Below are positions 8,185 to 25,367 of a stretch of 26,401 bases of DNA, in pieces. The stretch comes from a virus. The translations under genes and the position numbers were made by a program. The stretch is taken from the IMG/VR virus record IMGVR_UViG_3300021376_000300, positions 1 to 26,401 of that record. One strand, given 5' to 3'. The stretch's first letter is position 1; each line of letters starts with the position of its first letter. Under the pieces are notes generated by a model. It saw only the letters and a program-made list of their open reading frames with translations. It had not been told where the DNA came from and searched no databases.

Positions 8185-8410
8185 AAGTAATCCAAGAAAG
8201 CTTCTTGATAAGCTTGCCAGTCTTATGAACGGCTATCTGGATGAGGCGACGACCGATAAGGAGAGGGAGTCTGCGATTACTACTGGCCTCCAGACCCTCG
8301 TGAACTTTGCGATTTTGTCGTCTTGCACGACAGGTCTGACGGAAGACGAGATGCACGATGTCGTGCATAAGATTTACTCAGTGTACAATGAAGGCAAAGC
8401 AAATGACTGA
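8171..8410 (+). CDS. Small helical protein, C-terminal half of a split frame
   Basis: 79 residues, predicted helical: SNPRKLLDKLASLMNGYLDE, ESAITTGLQTLVNFAILSSC and LTEDEMHDVVHKIYSVYNE. No family recognised. The ATG is supplied by the 14-bp duplication and overlaps the previous stop by four bases. There is no good independent ribosome binding site, so expression probably depends on coupling. The stop lies just past the next gene's ATG (8403). Confidence 0.72.
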   Translation: MTGDQSNPRKLLDKLASLMNGYLDEATTDKERESAITTGLQTLVNFAILSSCTTGLTEDEMHDVVHKIYSVYNEGKAND

Positions 8411-8795
8411 AGAAATGAAACGCCTCATCAAGTCATATGAAGAGGAGCTTGATCATTATCGAAGTTTGTTCTCTGTGGACCAATTCTCGATACGGTTGCG
8501 GGATTACTTCGGGCTAACACAACAACTGGCGGCGGCGCTAAGGCTTTTCTTGGACACAGGCCGCGTGTCGAATGATGCGCTACAAAAAATTGCTGAGGTG
8601 TACGGGCGCAAAGAAGAGCACGATCAAAGCTACTCAAAGATTGTGGTCTGGCGGTTGCGTAAAGCTTTCAAAAACTTTGGCTTTGTTATTGAGAATATTT
8701 ACGGGTGGGGATACGGGATGCCGCCTGATCAGGTGAAGGAATTGAAGGACATTATGAACGGCAAGAAAGTCAAGAAAGTCAAGAAAGGAAAATGA
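8403..8795 (+). CDS. OmpR/PhoB-type winged-helix DNA-binding protein
   Basis: 130 residues. Residues about 33-105 (LRDYFGLTQQLAAALRLFLD, RVSNDALQKIAEVYG, SKIVVWRLRKAFKNFGFVIE, NIYGWGYGM) follow the Trans_reg_C winged helix of response regulators, including the recognition-helix pattern V-x2-RLRK and the wing-hairpin G-W/V-GY. There is no receiver domain, so it would act without phosphorylation. The C-terminal tail is lysine-rich (KKVKKVKKGK). The frame reaches back to 8358, but ATG 8403 follows AAGG and overlaps the previous stop. A phage transcription regulator is the likely role; its targets are unknown. Confidence 0.78.
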   Translation: MTEEMKRLIKSYEEELDHYRSLFSVDQFSIRLRDYFGLTQQLAAALRLFLDTGRVSNDALQKIAEVYGRKEEHDQSYSKIVVWRLRKAFKNFGFVIENIYGWGYGMPPDQVKELKDIMNGKKVKKVKKGK

Positions 8796-8798
8796 GAA

Positions 8799-9056
8799 AT
8801 GTCTTTTAAAATATTAAGGGTTAAAGAAGTAATGGCACGGTGTGGGTTGTCGCGAAGCATGATTTACGTTTTGATGGCGGAAAACAAGTTTCCCGCTTCA
8901 ATTAATCTTACAATGCGGTCTATTGGATGGGTCGAGCAAGACATTGAGGATTGGATTTCATCCAGAATTGCCAAGTCGAAAAAAGCCAAGGCGAAAAAAG
9001 CCAAGGCCTTGAAGAAAATGAAAGTTAATTTAAATGACCGTATCCTACATCAATAA
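8799..9056 (+). CDS. AlpA/excisionase-like DNA-binding protein
   Basis: 85 residues. ILRVKEVMARCGLSRSMIYV followed by FPASINLTMRSIGWVEQDIE and DWISSRIAKS is the Phage_AlpA (MerR-like winged helix) pattern: a helix-turn-helix, a variable loop, then W-x-E-x2-I-x2-W. Family members regulate excision or early promoters. The tail is a lysine/alanine run (KKAKAKKAKALKKMK). It overlaps the next gene by 23 bases. No integrase is present in the window. Confidence 0.85.
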   Translation: MSFKILRVKEVMARCGLSRSMIYVLMAENKFPASINLTMRSIGWVEQDIEDWISSRIAKSKKAKAKKAKALKKMKVNLNDRILHQ

Positions 9057-9573
9057 TTACAAAACGATACGCAATAAGTTTCGTTCGCCGGCGAAGCCTG
9101 CTGTGGTTCAAAAGACAGAGGTCAAAGAACAACCCGCACCTGCCGTTGTGCTTGAGCCAAAGCAGATTAAAGAGCTTCCAAAGATCGAGCGGTGGGCGCG
9201 TTACGGTTCGAACGGTAAGAACTATCGCGACATGATAAGTGACGCGAGAATACTTCGCATCGAAGCAGAGGAGCGTGGCATCAGCTTCTATACCAAGCTC
9301 CTGGAAGGTATGCCGACCGTATCGAACCGCCTGAAGCTTGTGACGGTGGTCGTGCTTGAGGAATACGCGATTGGTTGGAAGACACTGTTTGACAAGGAAC
9401 GGTGTGTGTTTAAGACAGCGATACGATGGAAAGTCTTTGACGCACTACGTAAAGAGGGCCTGTCGCTTTTAGAAATTGCAAAGCTGTGTAACGTGGATCA
9501 CACGTCGGTGATGCACGGTCTTAAAAGAATCAGAGGAGGGAATATAGATGTCCGACACACAAAGAATTCTTAG
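9034..9573 (+). CDS. DnaA domain IV-like DNA-binding protein
   Basis: 179 residues. The C-terminal part, KTAIRWKVFDALRKEGLSLL followed by EIAKLCNVDHTSVMHGLKRI, matches the DnaA C-terminal DNA-binding domain (domain IV), including the DHTSV-H signature that contacts the DnaA box. No AAA+ domain (domain III) is present. The N-terminus is Pro/Lys/Glu-rich and probably disordered. It could bind host-type DnaA boxes for origin choice or regulation. It overlaps the genes on both sides (23 and 26 bases). The domain call is good; the role is inferred. Confidence 0.83.
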   Translation: MTVSYINNYKTIRNKFRSPAKPAVVQKTEVKEQPAPAVVLEPKQIKELPKIERWARYGSNGKNYRDMISDARILRIEAEERGISFYTKLLEGMPTVSNRLKLVTVVVLEEYAIGWKTLFDKERCVFKTAIRWKVFDALRKEGLSLLEIAKLCNVDHTSVMHGLKRIRGGNIDVRHTKNS

Positions 9574-9931: not shown

Positions 9932-10029
9932 GCCCTGAGTGGTTAGTTTTTATCCTCGGTGAGTCAGTTGTAGCCTTGTGCATTGTGATGATTTTGATTG
10001 GGCGACACACAAGAGGTCCAAGTGCCTGA
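9928..10029 (+). CDS. 33-residue single-span membrane peptide
   Basis: A short frame of 33 codons: MSPEWLVFILGESVVALCIV then MILIGRHTRGPSA. Residues about 5-24 form one hydrophobic membrane helix, followed by a positively charged tail that predicts Nout-Cin orientation. ATG overlaps the stop of the previous gene (ATGA) and the frame overlaps the next start by eight bases, consistent with a translationally coupled small gene. The function is unknown; small phage membrane peptides can be lysis regulators or inhibitors of membrane processes. Confidence 0.55.
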   Translation: MSPEWLVFILGESVVALCIVMILIGRHTRGPSA

Positions 10030-10339
10030 TGTTATTATGTGTAAAGAAACGATTGTTGAGGCAAAAATGAAAACGAAGCGAGCACGTGTTGTAAAGACAA
10101 CTAAAACTCTTGTTGAGGCGGAAATGAAAACGAAACGAGCACGTGTTGTAAAGACAACTAAAACTCTTGATGAAATTATGTCTGAGTTTATGACTGCAAT
10201 GACAAATTATTACGGGGTAGTCTCTCGTAAAATAGAACATGAGAAGGAATTAAAAAAACTTCAGAACAAAGAAAGTGAACTGCTTATCAAATACAATATT
10301 GCTTTGTTGAACATAGAAAAGCATTTCAAGGTAACATAA
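10022..10339 (+). CDS. Basic tandem-repeat protein
   Basis: 105 residues. It contains two copies of a 19-residue unit, VEAEMKTKRARVVKTTKTL (first copy VEAKMKTKRARVVKTTKTL), strongly basic and Thr-rich, then a helical coiled-coil-like C-terminal half (KIEHEKELKKLQNKESELL). The repeats suggest nucleic-acid binding; no family recognised. I chose GTG 10022, preceded by AGAGG at five bases; an ATG at 10037 and a TTG at 9998 are alternatives. The 57-bp DNA repeats are nearly identical, so the duplication is recent. Base composition is AT-rich, like the following gene. Confidence 0.7.
   Translation: MPDVIMCKETIVEAKMKTKRARVVKTTKTLVEAEMKTKRARVVKTTKTLDEIMSEFMTAMTNYYGVVSRKIEHEKELKKLQNKESELLIKYNIALLNIEKHFKVT
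10055..10168 (+). repeat. 57-bp in-frame tandem repeat (two copies)
   Basis: Units at 10055-10111 and 10112-10168 differ at only a few positions and encode the 19-residue basic repeat. 57 is a multiple of three, so copy-number change keeps the frame. Confidence 0.95.
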
Positions 10340-10390
10340 ATCAGCGAAGGTAGCGAGTTTACTTTTTAAATTTTTAGAAAGGAAAGAGAT

Positions 10391-10870
10391 ATGATGTACT
10401 ACGATCCAAAACAAATGGAGCCCTTTGACGATATGGTTCCTTCTGTTGATTCTACTACTAAGGACATCCTCAACAAAGCTATAAAAATTTATGAAGACCA
10501 AGTCTCAGTGGTTGAGGCTCAAAAGATTACTATAAAACACCTGAAGACTATTCTTGATGAGATAACAAACGACTTCATAGTTTTGAAAAGAAAATACATG
10601 CTTTCTCTTGGGGAAAAAGGCATCGCATTTGAGAAGCCAATAAAAGACCTTGATATCAGTATGCGAACTTATAATGCTTTCAGAGACCTGAGGCTTAAAA
10701 CTTTAGGTGATGTGTATGTAATTAGAAAAGAGGAACTTTTACGTCAGCGTAACTTTGGTAAAACTTCTCTCAAAGAAGTAGAGGAACTTATGTTAAGTCA
10801 CGGTCTTGAAAATTGGGGCGAGAAAAATGTGATACGAAGAAACTATCCACAACTTTTCAATGGGTCCTGA
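10391..10870 (+). CDS. RNA polymerase alpha-CTD-like protein with coiled-coil N-terminus
   Basis: 159 residues. Residues about 82-139 (KPIKDLDISMRTYNAFRDLR, LKTLGDVYVIRKEELLRQRN, FGKTSLKEVEELMLSHGL) align with the C-terminal domain of bacterial RNA polymerase alpha. Equivalents of the E. coli DNA-contacting residues R265, N268, N294, G296, S299 and E302 are present as R92, N95, N121, G123, S126 and E129; K298 is T125. The N-terminal ~75 residues are heptad-rich, so it is probably an oligomer. There is no alpha-NTD, so it would not assemble into RNAP as a normal alpha. It may bind UP-element-like DNA or sigma/activators to redirect host transcription. Three hand-counted 60-base lines are 33-37% GC, well below the replication genes. 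GGAAAG precedes the ATG. Confidence 0.85.
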   Translation: MMYYDPKQMEPFDDMVPSVDSTTKDILNKAIKIYEDQVSVVEAQKITIKHLKTILDEITNDFIVLKRKYMLSLGEKGIAFEKPIKDLDISMRTYNAFRDLRLKTLGDVYVIRKEELLRQRNFGKTSLKEVEELMLSHGLENWGEKNVIRRNYPQLFNGS

Positions 10871-10934: not shown

Positions 10935-11273
10935 GTGACGGTTTATATTACGCAAGAAGTCAGGGGAAGAGATCTCTCTGATGCTTTAAGTTTCGGTGAG
11001 CTAGATGTTCTGATTCCTGCAAAGGATCAGATAGCTTTGTCTGCCGCGCCAACAGTACGGCGTATGTTAAGGAAGCTGTCTAAGTTTACTGATAAGGACT
11101 ATTTAGTCCTATCCGGTGATCCAGTTTGCATTGGCATCGCTTGTGCCATTGCGGCTACTTCAAACAATGGAAAGTTCCAAGTGTTGAAGTGGGATAGGTT
11201 GGATCAGATATACTATCCAATACAGGTCAATCTCTTTGGAAAGGAGAAAGAAAGTGGATCTGTCAGTTCTTGA
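10935..11273 (+). CDS. Conserved phage hypothetical protein, 112 residues
   Basis: 112 residues. YITQEVRGRDLSDALSFGEL, then LVLSGDPVCIGIACAIAA and FQVLKWDRLDQIYYPIQVNL, form a pattern that I recognise from many phage genomes at this position, just before the replication genes. No function is known. It starts with GTG 10935 with GGAGAAGAAAG before it. It overlaps the next gene by 20 bases. Confidence 0.85.
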   Translation: MTVYITQEVRGRDLSDALSFGELDVLIPAKDQIALSAAPTVRRMLRKLSKFTDKDYLVLSGDPVCIGIACAIAATSNNGKFQVLKWDRLDQIYYPIQVNLFGKEKESGSVSS

Positions 11274-19441: not shown

Positions 19442-19950
19442 GTTGCCATCTCAAACGCAGTCTTCTCCACGTTATCAACGCGACGTTGCCAGCCCTTCCC
19501 AAATGTACTCCAGGTGGGAAGGGACTGCATAAACGCGAGACGTTTGTCGCAGATGTTTGTTACAAGGTCGCGTGGGGGTGCAATGGCTACGGCAGCAAGA
19601 GTAACTGGCCCAATGATGCCATCTTGATTAAGTCCAAGAACAGTTTGAAGAAACTTAGCGGCACGCACAACACCACTATTAACAGCAACATCAAACACAG
19701 CATAGTCCACGCCTGCCGGTAGATCATCTCCACGGACACGGTCCCAGTAGTTCTTTTTGTAGAGCGGTTGGACATCTTCTATTGTCAATGCTTTCATGTC
19801 ATCGATTGTTACTGGGTGACCGACCCACTCTTCCCAAACTTTTTTAGTCACACCTTTATTGGTTGCCCCGCCCGGGTCAGATGGATGATTTACAAAACCC
19901 CCCTCGTGTTTGAGGACGTGAGCAAGGCAAGTACTGTAGTTATCGCGCAT
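19438..19950 (-). CDS. Endolysin, GH108 family
   Basis: 170 residues. CLAHVLKHEGGFVNHPSDPG then GATNKGVT is the GH108 (DUF847) muramidase signature, with E16 in HEGG the likely catalytic acid. The C-terminal half (VNSGVVRAAKFLQTVLGLNQ, DGIIGPVT) is the PG_binding_3 peptidoglycan-binding part. It cleaves host peptidoglycan at lysis. There is no signal peptide, so a holin or other release is needed; none is recognised here. ATG overlaps the stop of the polyvalent protein gene (TAATG on the reverse strand). Confidence 0.94.
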   Translation of the reverse strand: MRDNYSTCLAHVLKHEGGFVNHPSDPGGATNKGVTKKVWEEWVGHPVTIDDMKALTIEDVQPLYKKNYWDRVRGDDLPAGVDYAVFDVAVNSGVVRAAKFLQTVLGLNQDGIIGPVTLAAVAIAPPRDLVTNICDKRLAFMQSLPTWSTFGKGWQRRVDNVEKTAFEMAT

Positions 19951-22900
19951 TAGTTATACCCAACTTCTTTCGCCACTTTATAGGCCCGTTCAGACAATGT
20001 AGCCTTTCGATCTCGAAGGGTGTTTAAATACTCTGTTTTTTTCTCAGCGGGAAGATTTGGATTATTACGAATAGATCTCATCTTCTTGTTGATCTCATTG
20101 ATATCACGTTCAACGGAGTTTAGTACTTTACCAAGCGCAGCAGCCCTTGGGTTATCTGCGATTTTTTCTTTAACTAGCTCAAAATCTTTAGCCTCAGCAG
20201 CGTCCCTCATAGAGTTTGTAATCTGCTCTACTGTGCGCTTAACCTCGTAGAATTTACTAACATAGTCATTACGTATTGAGCGTTCTGTTTTAAAAAATCG
20301 ATTTAATCCGGCTACGTTTGCTAACATACCTTGGAAAGACGTAGGATCTCCAAAGTAACCTTCGGGTCGCGTCCCACCACCAGATAATAAACCATCGATA
20401 GTTCCTGTCATTACCGTTGCAAATGTACCAAGATACCCGCGCAGCAAAGCGTCCGCTTGCTTTGGTGACAAGTACGGCACGCCTTTAGCAACAAGTTTTG
20501 CAACTTCTGAGGTGTATTCATCCACACGCTCGTTCTCGGGGCGCTTTTGTTCCGAGATATTTTCAATCTGCTGGCCGGTAAAAGATTCTCTGTTGGCGTA
20601 GTAGACATCGACGAGAGGTTTGACAGCCTGAGGTATAGCGTTGAACGAAAACGTAGTGCTGAGAATGTGAGTCAGACCTTCCACAAGTTCCTCTGACTCC
20701 TTCTTGCGTGCCGCATCAATTACAAGCGACGGCACAGCACCGAACAAGGAACCAAGTTCGAATGGACGAGGCAATGCAATAATGGTGTCACCAACTTTTA
20801 CGTAGTTGTTTGAAACCTTATCTTGAACAGACAACTTATCATACCACTCGTCGTCGCCGTACATGGCCTGAAGTGCCAACTCAAACATCAGGAGCAATGC
20901 GCCACGAGCAACGATTGCGTTGGTTATACCAACGGCACCACCAAACTTTGCAACAACATCTTTATTCGCACCACCTGCAGTGTTGGGTTCAATCAAACGA
21001 TAGAGACCTTGAACACGCGCATTTAAAAACGGTACCAAGGGAATAAGAAATGCGATAGCACTCCCAAACACACCGCGTCCAGTACCACTGCGGCTGAAGT
21101 TCACAAGGTTAACCGCTTCATACGCAGCATCAGCAGGAGCCATTCCGCTGCCGCCCTTGTCTTTAGATTTTGTAAGCCAGTTGTAATACGCGATACGGGG
21201 AGCCATTTCAGAAAGCTCGCCAATCTCTTCGAGCATGTCAATAATAGCCATCGCACGTTGCTTGTACGTAGGCGTACCTGCTTTCAAAGCGTATTGACGG
21301 AGCATGTACTCGGCCTGATCTTTTGACCGAGAACCAATGTTGTACCCACCAAAACCTTGCTGAGCAATAATTGCCCTATACGATGGATTATCAAGAAAAC
21401 CTTGTCTAAGAGTTTGGTTAAATCCACTACCCATAAGTTTAAATGTTTCTGTAGCCAACTCAAAAAACGGCATCCCTGTTTTAATATATGTGTCAATAAG
21501 ACCACGATACATATTGGCAATCTGAAACGCGGGCATACTTGTAACACCGAGTCGTAACAATTCGGTCAAACGCGTAAAGAATTTCATCCACCCTTGAAGC
21601 TGTTTAGGCGACAATGAAGCTAATGCTTGAAACATTGGAACGTCATTTACACGGAAATGCTTTTCTCCACCGGCAACGCGGTATGTAATGACACCTTCAC
21701 CACCGCCCTTACCGACAGGTTCCACCAGAGACCTATCCTTTGTCTTTGCAACATATTCCGCACCTACCTTGGCAACCTTGCTATAGGCAACATTCTTCAG
21801 TCCCATTGTTACAATGGCGCTGTAGTTTCTTAAAACATTAGCGTAAAAGTCAGGGTCAAGTTTTATTTTGCCGTTCTTCAGCTTTGGACTAAAGTCTTTG
21901 ATTGATTGAGGATCTTTGATTGCCCCATCAACTTCTGGAGACAGGATAAGGTTGCCGTCCTTTTGAAGACCCTCTTCTTGCTTACGATAGAATGGGGTAT
22001 ACATCATCGAAAGAAACGCCTCGGATTGCTCTTTGGTGATGATGCCCGTGTCCAAAGCAAACTTGATCATCTTGCTGTTGAAGTAACGGTACTTCTCAGC
22101 AATCTTCTTAAGTTCCGGGTCGGCATTGTCGATAATAGATTTAAGTTCGCCCATCGTGAACGGACGACCTGTTTTTTCGTTCTCAAACCCAAGACCACTA
22201 CGATTAGCTTTACGCAAATCATATTCGCGCATAGCAACTGTTAATGCTTGAATCTCACCTTGCCGTGCAACTCCCGCTTCCTCAAAGAGTTCCTGAAGAC
22301 CACCCGTTGTAGAGTCAAACTTAAACTCGTTGGTTGCAGGGTCGTATGCAAGAGCGCCAAACTTAATCATGCCGACTAAGCGACCTTGCATGTTCTGCAC
22401 ACTCTCTAAAAGCCTACCAACCTGACGGAACTCAGGTCTTTCCAAGAATGGAAGATTTGCAGCAACAGTGTTTCTAAGCAAGGCTTTGAACATGGGTTCG
22501 TATGTAACCTTGCCATTGACGACAATTTTTTCTGCCCCGGTAATTTCGGCAAGAGTTTTTGCAAACCAAGAACTATCGTTTGTAGGGCCTGTAACAAAAG
22601 TGGCAAACTCACTCAGTGTAGGAGGCGTTGCTGTAGTTGTCGGAGGAATTTTAGCTTCCTTGGAAACAACTTGAGTACCTTCTTGAGACGGCTGTGCCTG
22701 CGCCGAAATAATGTTTGGCGTTGCCGAAGGAGTAATAACTCTACGCTGGCGAATCTGACCTTTATCTGGAACTTTTGTTTCAACACCGTACACTTCGGTC
22801 AGAAGCTTTTCAAAAGCACCTTCTGTGGGTGTGATGCCCAAAAGATTAGAAATGTAAGAAAAGATATCACGCATCGACTTAAGCACGTCACTTTGAAATT

Positions 22901-25367
22901 TTTCCATGACGGTCTTAGGCGTGCGGCCTTCCAATTCCTTCGCAAGCCAGCGAGCACCCTTCTCGGCAACCCACTCAGAAAAGTCCTGATAATACTTTCC
23001 GGCAGGAGATTCGGATCCTTTAGCAGACATGCTTGTTGCAATATCTGATGGGACAGTTTTTGCCGAAGAACTCATGAAACGATTGAACTGTTCTTCGGTA
23101 ATACCTGCTGTTTTGATAATTGACTGCTTGGCCGCAGGTTGTTTTATTCTTCCAGAATAACCCATCTCTCGAACAAACGTGAATCTCTCAAAAGCAGAGG
23201 CGTTCTTTTCTTTCAAATACTGCTGAAAGATCTCATCGCGAGTTTTTTGGTCAGACGTTTTAATCCAATAGTCTTCAGTAAGATGAGCCAACTCGTGGAA
23301 AAGAGTGTGCAGAAAAGCAACCTTAGGGGTCTGCCCATATTTCGCCGATGCCGTAAAATTAAGTTCAATCGCCGAGCCGGAAACTTCTTTGCCGCCGTAA
23401 ATTTTTTTACCCTTTTTTACGCCGCCAACAATCTGTGTTCTTTGATCGCCCGCGCCTACTGTGCGACCAAGAGATCCCATCTGATTGTTTGTGGAAACCG
23501 TAAGATTTGACCCCGGGAAAAGGTCACGTTGAATTTGACGAATAATATCCGCTGATCCCGGAAGCATGTTCTCAAGCGCCCGCTCTGTAGTACCTTTAAA
23601 GGTGATCGTTGTAGGTGCAATAGGACGCGGAGGCGTTGGGATAGCCGGAGGCGTCTGGACAGGGGGTGCCTGAACAGGTGGAGTCGGGGCAGGTACGGTG
23701 AGTGCCGGTGCTTTCGGTGCAGCAGGTGCTTTCGGTGCAGCAGGTGCTTTCGGTGCAGCAGGTGCTTTCGGTGCAGCAGGTGCTTTCGGTGCAGCACCCT
23801 CTGGAATGGTAGCGCCGCTGACAATCTCGGGGTACTTGGGACCTCTGCGGGAGAAATCTACAGGAATAACACCCGACATCTCTCCTTTGCTATAATTGAC
23901 AGCGGCAAGATTTCTTATGTGCTGACGTACAGCTCCAGCAATCGGGTCAATGAGAGCGTCGTCAAACCCCACTTTACGCAAGAAGTCGCGATACTCAACA
24001 TCACGGCTGCTTTTTTCTGACTGAGATACGAAATACAGCGCCTTGTCTACGTCGTTAAAAAACAACGGGGTGTATGAGCCTCCTCCAAAGTTAATTGGCT
24101 TGGGCTTGGCCCCGGAAAGATTTTGAGGAAGGGAGAAAACCGGCAGCTGTGTATGCGGCCCGTCAAGGGGATCTCCCTCAAGATACGGACTTGCGGGTTT
24201 CGCAGGCTTGGTAGGCGGAGCCTCGTCAGAAGGAGTAGCTTCTGTTTCCGGTGCAGCTTCAGTGTCGCCAGCCGGAGGCGGAGGAATAACCGGTGTGTCA
24301 GGTGTCAACGGCTTTCCGTCAGTTCCGATCCGAACACGAGTAGGACGTTGCCCAAATGCAGCCTCAAACGGGCCACCTATAATCGCACCAAGTGTGCCGC
24401 CAAGAATTGCCGACTGAGCAACGCCAGAGGATGTTGGGACATTGACGCCCTCTCTTTGAAGAGCGACGTTCTGGGCAAGTTGTTCCTGTCCCTCTTGCAG
24501 GGCTTCCGGAATTGCTTCTATCGCAGCGCCTTTCAACAGGCGTTTGCGAAGGCCTGCGCCGCCCATCTCAACGTAGCCTTCCTTCGCACCGGTCTTTGCC
24601 ATCTGCTCCGCAGTGGCTTCAGCCAGTTTCTTGAAAGATTCTTTTTCGGAGACGCGCTTGAGGATCTTTGAGGAGATAAGTTTTACTGCACCTCTCTCAA
24701 GACCAGTTGAACCGGCAAGACCACCGAGAAGCGCACCCACAACAATTTGATCTAAGTTCTTGCCGTTATAGGCTTGTGCAACTTGTGCGCGAGCAGCAAT
24801 GTCCTCGTCTGACAAGTCGGTGTTCTGCTTAAGTTCCTGCGTGATGGCATCATAGATGTCGCCTTTAACTGTACCAACACCACCGACTGCACCCAAAGCT
24901 GCGCCGCTAAGAGGGCCCCCTGCCAAAGCCGCGATGATGTAGGGTGCTGTACCACCGGCAAGGCTTGCAATAGTATCAACGGGTGCAATTTTAATATATT
25001 CCCAAGAAGCCACGAGGTTTGCAAGGACACCTTCGTCCTTTGCTTTTGCAAGAACTTCTTGCTGAGCCTTGGCGTCCTTGTAATACTGGGCGGACATGTA
25101 CTCGCCCAACAAATCTTCGATGCCGCGCACGTTTTGAGAGAATTCATTGTTCGCACCAAAGGCATCACTAATATTGCGAACGCTCATGGCTACGTTACGA
25201 GCAAAGTTGAGTGGTACGTCTGCTATTGCACGCAGCTTCGGATATTCATCCTTCTGTTCTTCAGGAGGAGCGGGACGGTAAGCCTTAAAAGGAGCCGTTG
25301 GGTCAAACGCTCGCGAGGCTCCGGAGACCGGAACCGCCGCATATGGAGCAGAAGGATCAAAAGCCAT
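19950..25367 (-). CDS. Giant polyvalent virion-type protein with zincin protease motif and LPD38-like region
   Basis: 1805 residues. The N-terminus repeats AFDPSAPY/AFDPTAPF. Glycine-rich hydrophobic segments (about 132-168, 207-222 and 313-336) look membrane-active. A Pro/Ala/Lys linker has AAPKAP repeated five times (about 524-554). A metallopeptidase motif HELAH (691-695), in LHTLFHELAHLTEDYW, indicates a zincin. The C-terminal ~800 residues (RLGVTSMPAFQIANMYRGLI, VNLVNFSRSGTGRGVFGS) resemble the large polyvalent protein-associated domain LPD38. Such proteins are packaged and injected with DNA in short-tailed phages; the protease would act on host or virion proteins. It is late, cotranscribed with the endolysin. 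Family assignment was made by eye. Confidence 0.87.
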   Translation of the reverse strand: MAFDPSAPYAAVPVSGASRAFDPTAPFKAYRPAPPEEQKDEYPKLRAIADVPLNFARNVAMSVRNISDAFGANNEFSQNVRGIEDLLGEYMSAQYYKDAKAQQEVLAKAKDEGVLANLVASWEYIKIAPVDTIASLAGGTAPYIIAALAGGPLSGAALGAVGGVGTVKGDIYDAITQELKQNTDLSDEDIAARAQVAQAYNGKNLDQIVVGALLGGLAGSTGLERGAVKLISSKILKRVSEKESFKKLAEATAEQMAKTGAKEGYVEMGGAGLRKRLLKGAAIEAIPEALQEGQEQLAQNVALQREGVNVPTSSGVAQSAILGGTLGAIIGGPFEAAFGQRPTRVRIGTDGKPLTPDTPVIPPPPAGDTEAAPETEATPSDEAPPTKPAKPASPYLEGDPLDGPHTQLPVFSLPQNLSGAKPKPINFGGGSYTPLFFNDVDKALYFVSQSEKSSRDVEYRDFLRKVGFDDALIDPIAGAVRQHIRNLAAVNYSKGEMSGVIPVDFSRRGPKYPEIVSGATIPEGAAPKAPAAPKAPAAPKAPAAPKAPAAPKAPALTVPAPTPPVQAPPVQTPPAIPTPPRPIAPTTITFKGTTERALENMLPGSADIIRQIQRDLFPGSNLTVSTNNQMGSLGRTVGAGDQRTQIVGGVKKGKKIYGGKEVSGSAIELNFTASAKYGQTPKVAFLHTLFHELAHLTEDYWIKTSDQKTRDEIFQQYLKEKNASAFERFTFVREMGYSGRIKQPAAKQSIIKTAGITEEQFNRFMSSSAKTVPSDIATSMSAKGSESPAGKYYQDFSEWVAEKGARWLAKELEGRTPKTVMEKFQSDVLKSMRDIFSYISNLLGITPTEGAFEKLLTEVYGVETKVPDKGQIRQRRVITPSATPNIISAQAQPSQEGTQVVSKEAKIPPTTTATPPTLSEFATFVTGPTNDSSWFAKTLAEITGAEKIVVNGKVTYEPMFKALLRNTVAANLPFLERPEFRQVGRLLESVQNMQGRLVGMIKFGALAYDPATNEFKFDSTTGGLQELFEEAGVARQGEIQALTVAMREYDLRKANRSGLGFENEKTGRPFTMGELKSIIDNADPELKKIAEKYRYFNSKMIKFALDTGIITKEQSEAFLSMMYTPFYRKQEEGLQKDGNLILSPEVDGAIKDPQSIKDFSPKLKNGKIKLDPDFYANVLRNYSAIVTMGLKNVAYSKVAKVGAEYVAKTKDRSLVEPVGKGGGEGVITYRVAGGEKHFRVNDVPMFQALASLSPKQLQGWMKFFTRLTELLRLGVTSMPAFQIANMYRGLIDTYIKTGMPFFELATETFKLMGSGFNQTLRQGFLDNPSYRAIIAQQGFGGYNIGSRSKDQAEYMLRQYALKAGTPTYKQRAMAIIDMLEEIGELSEMAPRIAYYNWLTKSKDKGGSGMAPADAAYEAVNLVNFSRSGTGRGVFGSAIAFLIPLVPFLNARVQGLYRLIEPNTAGGANKDVVAKFGGAVGITNAIVARGALLLMFELALQAMYGDDEWYDKLSVQDKVSNNYVKVGDTIIALPRPFELGSLFGAVPSLVIDAARKKESEELVEGLTHILSTTFSFNAIPQAVKPLVDVYYANRESFTGQQIENISEQKRPENERVDEYTSEVAKLVAKGVPYLSPKQADALLRGYLGTFATVMTGTIDGLLSGGGTRPEGYFGDPTSFQGMLANVAGLNRFFKTERSIRNDYVSKFYEVKRTVEQITNSMRDAAEAKDFELVKEKIADNPRAAALGKVLNSVERDINEINKKMRSIRNNPNLPAEKKTEYLNTLRDRKATLSERAYKVAKEVGYN
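23707..23796 (+). repeat. 18-bp tandem repeat, five identical copies
   Basis: GGTGCTTTCGGTGCAGCA is repeated five times without a difference (23707-23796). On the coding (minus) strand it encodes AAPKAP units of the linker in the polyvalent protein. Identity at the DNA level implies recent expansion. Length changes stay in frame. Confidence 0.97.

What the first reader, a model, noticed from the sequence alone, without database searches (positions are those of the whole stretch)
10391..10870. Stand-alone RNA polymerase alpha-CTD mimic fused to a coiled coil
Seen: about 58 residues align with bacterial alpha-CTD, keeping six of seven DNA-contact (265-determinant) residues, without alpha-NTD. 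The N-terminal part is a predicted coiled coil. Known: alpha-CTD binds UP elements, sigma region 4 and activators. Inference: a phage factor that tethers or diverts host RNA polymerase or competes for UP elements.
Basis: partly seen in the sequence, partly recalled or inferred. Interest (0 to 1): 0.74.

Follow-up and report, generated by a model that had tools for sequence, protein, structure and literature searches.

The report
Phage stand-alone RNA polymerase alpha-tail protein
This freshwater phage carries a small protein that joins a long helix to a copy of the DNA-gripping tail of the bacterial RNA polymerase alpha subunit; other phages have captured this tail too, probably to steer the host's transcription machinery, but nobody seems to have tested it.

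Summary
ORF 10391-10870 (+, 159 aa) has residues 80-133 matching Pfam RNA_pol_A_CTD (6.4e-13; 48.7 bits, cut-off 23.8) with no alpha-NTD. AlphaFold2 gives one 52-residue helix followed by an alpha-CTD. The alpha-CTD superposes at 0.8 A over 61 columns on Caulobacter alpha-CTD bound to AT-rich DNA (9zum). Of the DNA-contact residues, R265, N268, N294, G296, S299 and E302 are kept; C269 is A and K298 is T. A 57%-identical ortholog in a syntenic 67 kb phage contig keeps the same six and the same K298T. The acidic 259/261 patch (sigma region 4 face) is kept; the 285-287 (CRP face) is not. A long helix is firm; a coiled-coil dimer is only plausible.

The gene is accessory, absent from the nearest named phages, and its allele looks exchanged. 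Stand-alone alpha-CTDs are already annotated in several phages. In a tree of the domain, phage copies fall in different bacterial groups, so phages captured it more than once. Some gut-type phages fuse it to a sigma-70 region 4. I found no published functional study. Best reading: a host-RNAP/promoter-DNA accessory factor. The mechanism is inferred.

The parts
10391..10870 (+). CDS of the stand-alone alpha-CTD protein (159 aa, stop included)
   Evidence: ortholog at the same place in L003 (57% aa identity, dN/dS well below 1)
10356..10389 (+). Leader conserved with the ortholog, including the Shine-Dalgarno-like AAAGGAAAG (10378-10386)
10391..10450 (+). Residues 1-20, MMYYDPKQMEP... short N-terminal segment, strongly conserved with the ortholog
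   Evidence: 80% aa, 87% nt identity against 42% aa in the next segment
10451..10606 (+). Residues 21-72: single long helix, possible coiled-coil dimerisation segment
   Evidence: AlphaFold2; heptad analysis marginal
10634..10810 (+). Residues 82-140: alpha-CTD domain
   Evidence: Pfam, PDB sequence search, AlphaFold2 pLDDT above 90, Foldseek rmsd 0.8 A
10646..10654 (+). D86 and D88 = E. coli D259 and E261, acidic patch facing sigma region 4
   Evidence: role from established knowledge
10664..10675 (+). R92 and N95 = E. coli R265 and N268, minor-groove contacts
10751..10777 (+). N121, G123, T125, S126, E129 = E. coli N294, G296, K298 (changed to T), S299, E302

Best explanation
A phage-encoded accessory transcription factor built on a captured RNA polymerase alpha-CTD. 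Shown: the domain, its fold, six kept DNA-contact residues, kept acidic 259/261 residues, a changed activator (285-287) face, a long N-terminal helix in place of the alpha-NTD, purifying selection, and no multisubunit RNA polymerase or sigma region 4 detected in the 67 kb relative. Inferred: the helix pairs to make a dimer that carries two alpha-CTDs, mimicking the alpha dimer of RNAP; these bind the minor groove of A+T-rich DNA upstream of promoters and touch sigma region 4 of the host holoenzyme. This would raise host RNAP use of phage promoters, or take UP elements and sigma contacts from the host alpha subunits. I favour a promoter-side helper or redirector over a pure poison, because DNA and sigma faces are both retained.
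For: Pfam 6.4e-13. Structure match at 0.8 A to alpha-CTD on AT-rich DNA. R265, N268, N294, G296, S299, E302 identical in both 57%-diverged orthologs (hypergeometric P 0.04), while 285 and 287 differ between them and 285-287 differ from E. coli in both. 259/261 acidic in both. Other phage proteins join alpha-CTD to Sigma70_r4 and an HTH (Sigma70_r4 1e-9, RNA_pol_A_CTD 2e-17 in L028), and the L028 model has a long helix straight before the alpha-CTD as here. Some phage alpha-CTDs group with Bacteroidota and others with Proteobacteria, i.e. repeated captures. No multisubunit RNAP or sigma region 4 in G001. The gene lies in a + strand run next to replication genes.
Against: No binding data. K298 and C269, invariant in the 15 bacterial RpoA rows compared, are lost in both orthologs, which may weaken DNA contact. 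Dimerisation rests on a marginal heptad signal and no multimer model. The gene is accessory and missing from related phages, so it is not essential to this phage type. The host is unknown, so the fit to host sigma cannot be judged.
Confidence: 0.5

Rival explanations
1. Competitor or shut-off factor: the protein occupies UP elements, sigma region 4 or alpha-CTD-binding activators without delivering polymerase, lowering host transcription during infection.
For: Same surface data as the best explanation; free alpha-CTD without the NTD cannot itself join RNAP. Other phages attack alpha by other means, e.g. Rac-mediated cleavage of the alpha subunit (PMC7552054).
Against: The activator face (285-287) is not kept, so decoying CRP-like activators is unlikely. 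K298T argues against strong DNA competition.
Confidence: 0.22
2. Simple A+T-rich minor-groove DNA-binding protein (nucleoid-like, replication-origin or counter-silencing role) that no longer touches RNA polymerase.
For: DNA-contact residues are the best kept; the gene lies beside replication genes.
Against: The acidic 259/261 patch, not needed for DNA binding, is kept in both orthologs; related phage architectures pair the domain with sigma region 4.
Confidence: 0.2
3. Generic HhH similarity or chance, not an alpha-CTD.
For: Alpha-CTD is an HhH-type fold; short domain of about 60 residues.
Against: E 6e-13, twice the gathering score, all strong PDB hits RpoA, no generic HhH model at E<1; NCBIfam RpoA models also hit.
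Confidence: 0.02
4. Decaying fragment of a captured rpoA without function.
For: Accessory gene, rapidly diverging (57% against 85-98% for the genes just downstream).
Against: dN/dS about 0.2-0.3 over the gene and 0.1-0.2 in the domain, intact frame and ribosome-binding site in both orthologs; the high dS points to allele exchange rather than decay.
Confidence: 0.04

Closest known systems
RpoA C-terminal domain of bacterial RNA polymerase (Pfam PF03118; structures 9zum Caulobacter, 1lb2/3n97 E. coli)
   Same: Fold (0.8-1.2 A), hairpin RNFGKTSLKE, R265/N268/N294/G296/S299/E302, acidic 259/261
   Different: No NTD so cannot assemble into RNAP; long N-terminal helix; C269A, K298T; changed 285-287 face
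Phage proteins already annotated as RNA polymerase alpha subunit C-terminal (uncultured Caudovirales entries such as A0A6J7WD60, Rhodococcus phage Finch A0A2P1JY10, Mycobacterium phage Mithril, Bacillus phage Goe8 gp5)
   Same: Stand-alone alpha-CTD in a tailed phage
   Different: Different N-terminal parts; only 17-29% identity in the structural matches; I found no functional study of any
Gut/rumen-type phage HTH-sigma70 region 4-alpha-CTD fusions (L027, L028, L029, L030, L033)
   Same: Alpha-CTD preceded by a long helix (modelled for L028)
   Different: These also carry an HTH_17/AlpA-like domain (not scored in L030) and a sigma-70 region 4; the window protein has neither
T4 sigma appropriation (MotA/AsiA) and Rac of phiKMV-like phages (PMC6755090, PMC7552054; titles and abstracts only)
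   Same: Phage proteins that act on the sigma or alpha side of host RNAP
   Different: Unrelated proteins; here the phage uses a copy of the polymerase's own domain

Membership tests
RNA polymerase alpha-CTD domain family (PF03118) | Profile score above curated cut-off | tested here: met
   48.7 bits vs 23.8; ortholog 55.5
RNA polymerase alpha-CTD domain family (PF03118) | Alpha-CTD fold | tested here: met
   AlphaFold2 plus Foldseek, rmsd 0.8 A to 9zum_E
RNA polymerase alpha-CTD domain family (PF03118) | 265 determinant (DNA contact) residues | tested here: met
   Mostly met: 6/7 or 5/7 by list; K298T and C269A changed
RNA polymerase alpha-CTD domain family (PF03118) | Binds A+T-rich/UP DNA | not testable with these tools
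   needs EMSA or footprinting
RNA polymerase alpha subunit (RpoA) | N-terminal dimerisation/assembly domain | tested here: not met
   ORF has none; only CTD hits, far below RpoA equivalog cut-offs
Sigma region 4-alpha-CTD phage fusion proteins | Sigma70_r4 domain in the same protein | tested here: not met
   no Sigma70_r4 hit in P0001 nor in G000/G001/G002
Phage stand-alone alpha-CTD proteins | Alpha-CTD without NTD encoded by a phage | tested here: met
   window is a virus record; syntenic phage contigs

The most novel reading that the evidence does not exclude
Phages have repeatedly captured the host polymerase's own alpha-CTD and rebuilt it as a separate dimeric promoter factor, sometimes fused to a sigma region 4, so that a phage supplies the UP/-35 recognition face of the holoenzyme in trans. 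The window protein would be the minimal form.
Probability: 0.3. Interest if true: 0.78.

Novelty: new member of a known kind. Interest (0 to 1): 0.52.

Why it matters
It gives a small, testable case of a phage using a copy of RNA polymerase's own regulatory domain rather than an unrelated inhibitor. If it works as proposed, it would show promoter recognition supplied in trans and explain a recurring but uncharacterised annotation in phage genomes. It also points to sigma-4/alpha-CTD fusion proteins in gut-type phages as a class worth biochemical study.

Tried and rejected
Generic HhH or chance: rejected.

Origin and host from a domain tree: window and L003 form a clade (100/99) on a long stem with no resolved bacterial source, so neither a Bacteroidota nor an Alphaproteobacteria origin is claimed. 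The window copy scores best against one RpoA chain of Bacteroidota type (9n9p, 43 bits), while L003 scores best against Caulobacter alpha-CTD (9zum).

A regulatory repeat upstream: the conserved leader occurs once and is explained by the ribosome-binding site and the conserved gene start. The sigma-70 promoter scan was no better than shuffles.

A T7-type polymerase was not found in the relatives, but that search had no positive control.

Literature searches for phage alpha-CTD proteins found no functional paper in the open library; subscription papers are not covered. The genome-contig scan returned only rpoA genes because the search pattern favoured Bacteroidota. Pattern-based scans of viral contigs are insensitive, so the frequency of this family in phages was not measured.

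Full report
Observation. The 159-aa ORF at 10391-10870 (+) is a real coding sequence. It has a conserved ribosome-binding site and an ortholog at the same place in a 67 kb phage contig (L003/G001). L002 carries the same gene as L003, and L001 carries a copy identical to the window. The window is itself a whole virus record of 26,401 bases.

Identity of the domain. Residues 80-133 match Pfam RNA_pol_A_CTD at 6.4e-13 (48.7 bits, cut-off 23.8), with no generic HhH family at E<1. The strong PDB sequence hits are all RpoA chains. NCBIfam RpoA models match only the C-terminal part of their length, far below their full-length cut-offs. AlphaFold2 (17-row alignment, mean pLDDT 84) shows a 52-residue helix and a CTD at pLDDT above 90. 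Foldseek places it on Caulobacter alpha-CTD bound to AT-rich DNA (9zum) at 0.8 A over 61 columns, with E. coli, Bacillus and cyanobacterial alpha-CTDs close behind.

Surface residues. Numbering was checked on an E. coli RpoA translation. R265, N268, N294, G296, S299 and E302 are kept in both the window and L003, which share only 36 of 60 aligned domain positions (P 0.04 that all six match by chance); C269 and K298 are changed in both. D259/E261, which face sigma region 4 (established knowledge), are D/D in the window and E/E in L003. Residues 285-287, the CRP-contact face (established knowledge), differ from E. coli in both. So the DNA and sigma faces are better kept than the activator face.

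Evolution. The three genes just downstream are 85-98% identical in protein between window and L003, but this gene is 57%. Its dS is 1.2-1.5 against 0.28-0.73 for two flanking genes, while the first 20 codons remain 87% identical and the leader is nearly so, which suggests exchange of a divergent allele. dN/dS is about 0.2-0.3 over the gene and 0.1-0.2 in the CTD, so selection is purifying; dS is near saturation and these values are rough. No alpha-CTD was found in the named relatives DSL-LC04, 023Pt_psg01 and Pan1.

Wider context. Other phage contigs carry alpha-CTDs with different partners: HTH plus sigma-70 region 4 (L027, L028, L033 by Pfam; L029 by similarity to L028; L030 has the sigma-4 part just under its cut-off), a likely membrane anchor (L031), and a short helical-looking N-terminus (L130). 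The L028 model has the order HTH, helix, sigma-4, 57-residue helix, alpha-CTD, though overall confidence is moderate (pLDDT 73, pTM 0.32). In a 60-column tree, L027, L028, L030, L031 and L033 lie among Bacteroidota RpoA (forks 83-92%, not all strongly supported). L130 and L129 lie in a starred fork with Alpha-, Beta- and Gammaproteobacteria rows. Window and L003 form their own clade on a long stem. This means capture more than once. BFVD already names several stand-alone phage alpha-CTD proteins, and Bacillus phage Goe8 has two copies, one near each end of its record. So the kind is known by annotation; I found no functional study in the open library.

Mechanism. The 67 kb relative shows no multisubunit RNAP and no sigma region 4, with working controls, so dependence on host RNAP is likely. 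The best reading is a dimer-forming alpha-CTD factor acting at the UP/-35 face of host holoenzyme. DNA binding is the better-supported step, sigma contact less so, and dimerisation and direction of effect are inferred. Competitor and DNA-only roles remain open.

Noticed in passing
L027, L028, L029, L030, L033 (L021): Phage proteins of about 300-337 aa that combine an AlpA/HTH_17-like domain, a sigma-70 region 4 and an alpha-CTD in one chain (HTH_17 not scored in L030, and its sigma-4 just below the cut-off). Potential trans-acting promoter-recognition factors.
   Followed up: partly
L129:2605-3513: 303-aa phage protein with an alpha-CTD in the middle and, by eye, a sigma-4-like HTH at the C-terminus.
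   Followed up: no
L031:2417-2746: 110-aa alpha-CTD protein with a likely N-terminal membrane helix (by eye); N268 is changed to Y.
   Followed up: no
L130:2809-3240: Short helical-looking N-terminus plus an alphaproteobacterial-type alpha-CTD: the same layout as the window protein, apparently a separate capture.
   Followed up: partly
window 9998-10339: Upstream 113-aa ORF contains a nearly exact direct repeat of about 57-60 bases (around 10058-10174) and a heptad-like C-terminal helix.
   Followed up: no
window 9034-9573: 179-aa protein whose C-terminus resembles DnaA domain IV (Pfam Bac_DnaA_C 0.0043, below cut-off).
   Followed up: no
window 8358-8795: 145-aa protein with a possible winged-helix motif by eye (VVWRLRKAF...GWGYGM); no convincing family hit.
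   Followed up: no
window 8799-9056: AlpA-type HTH regulator (Pfam Phage_AlpA 1.6e-18), not matched in the relative G001.
   Followed up: no
window 10935-11273: Pam3_gp32-like protein directly downstream, 98% identical in the relative while the alpha-CTD gene is 57%.
   Followed up: partly
window 19950-25367 (-): 1805-aa protein only about 40% identical over 1291 residues in a relative whose neighbouring genes are above 90%: a second strongly diverged locus.
   Followed up: no
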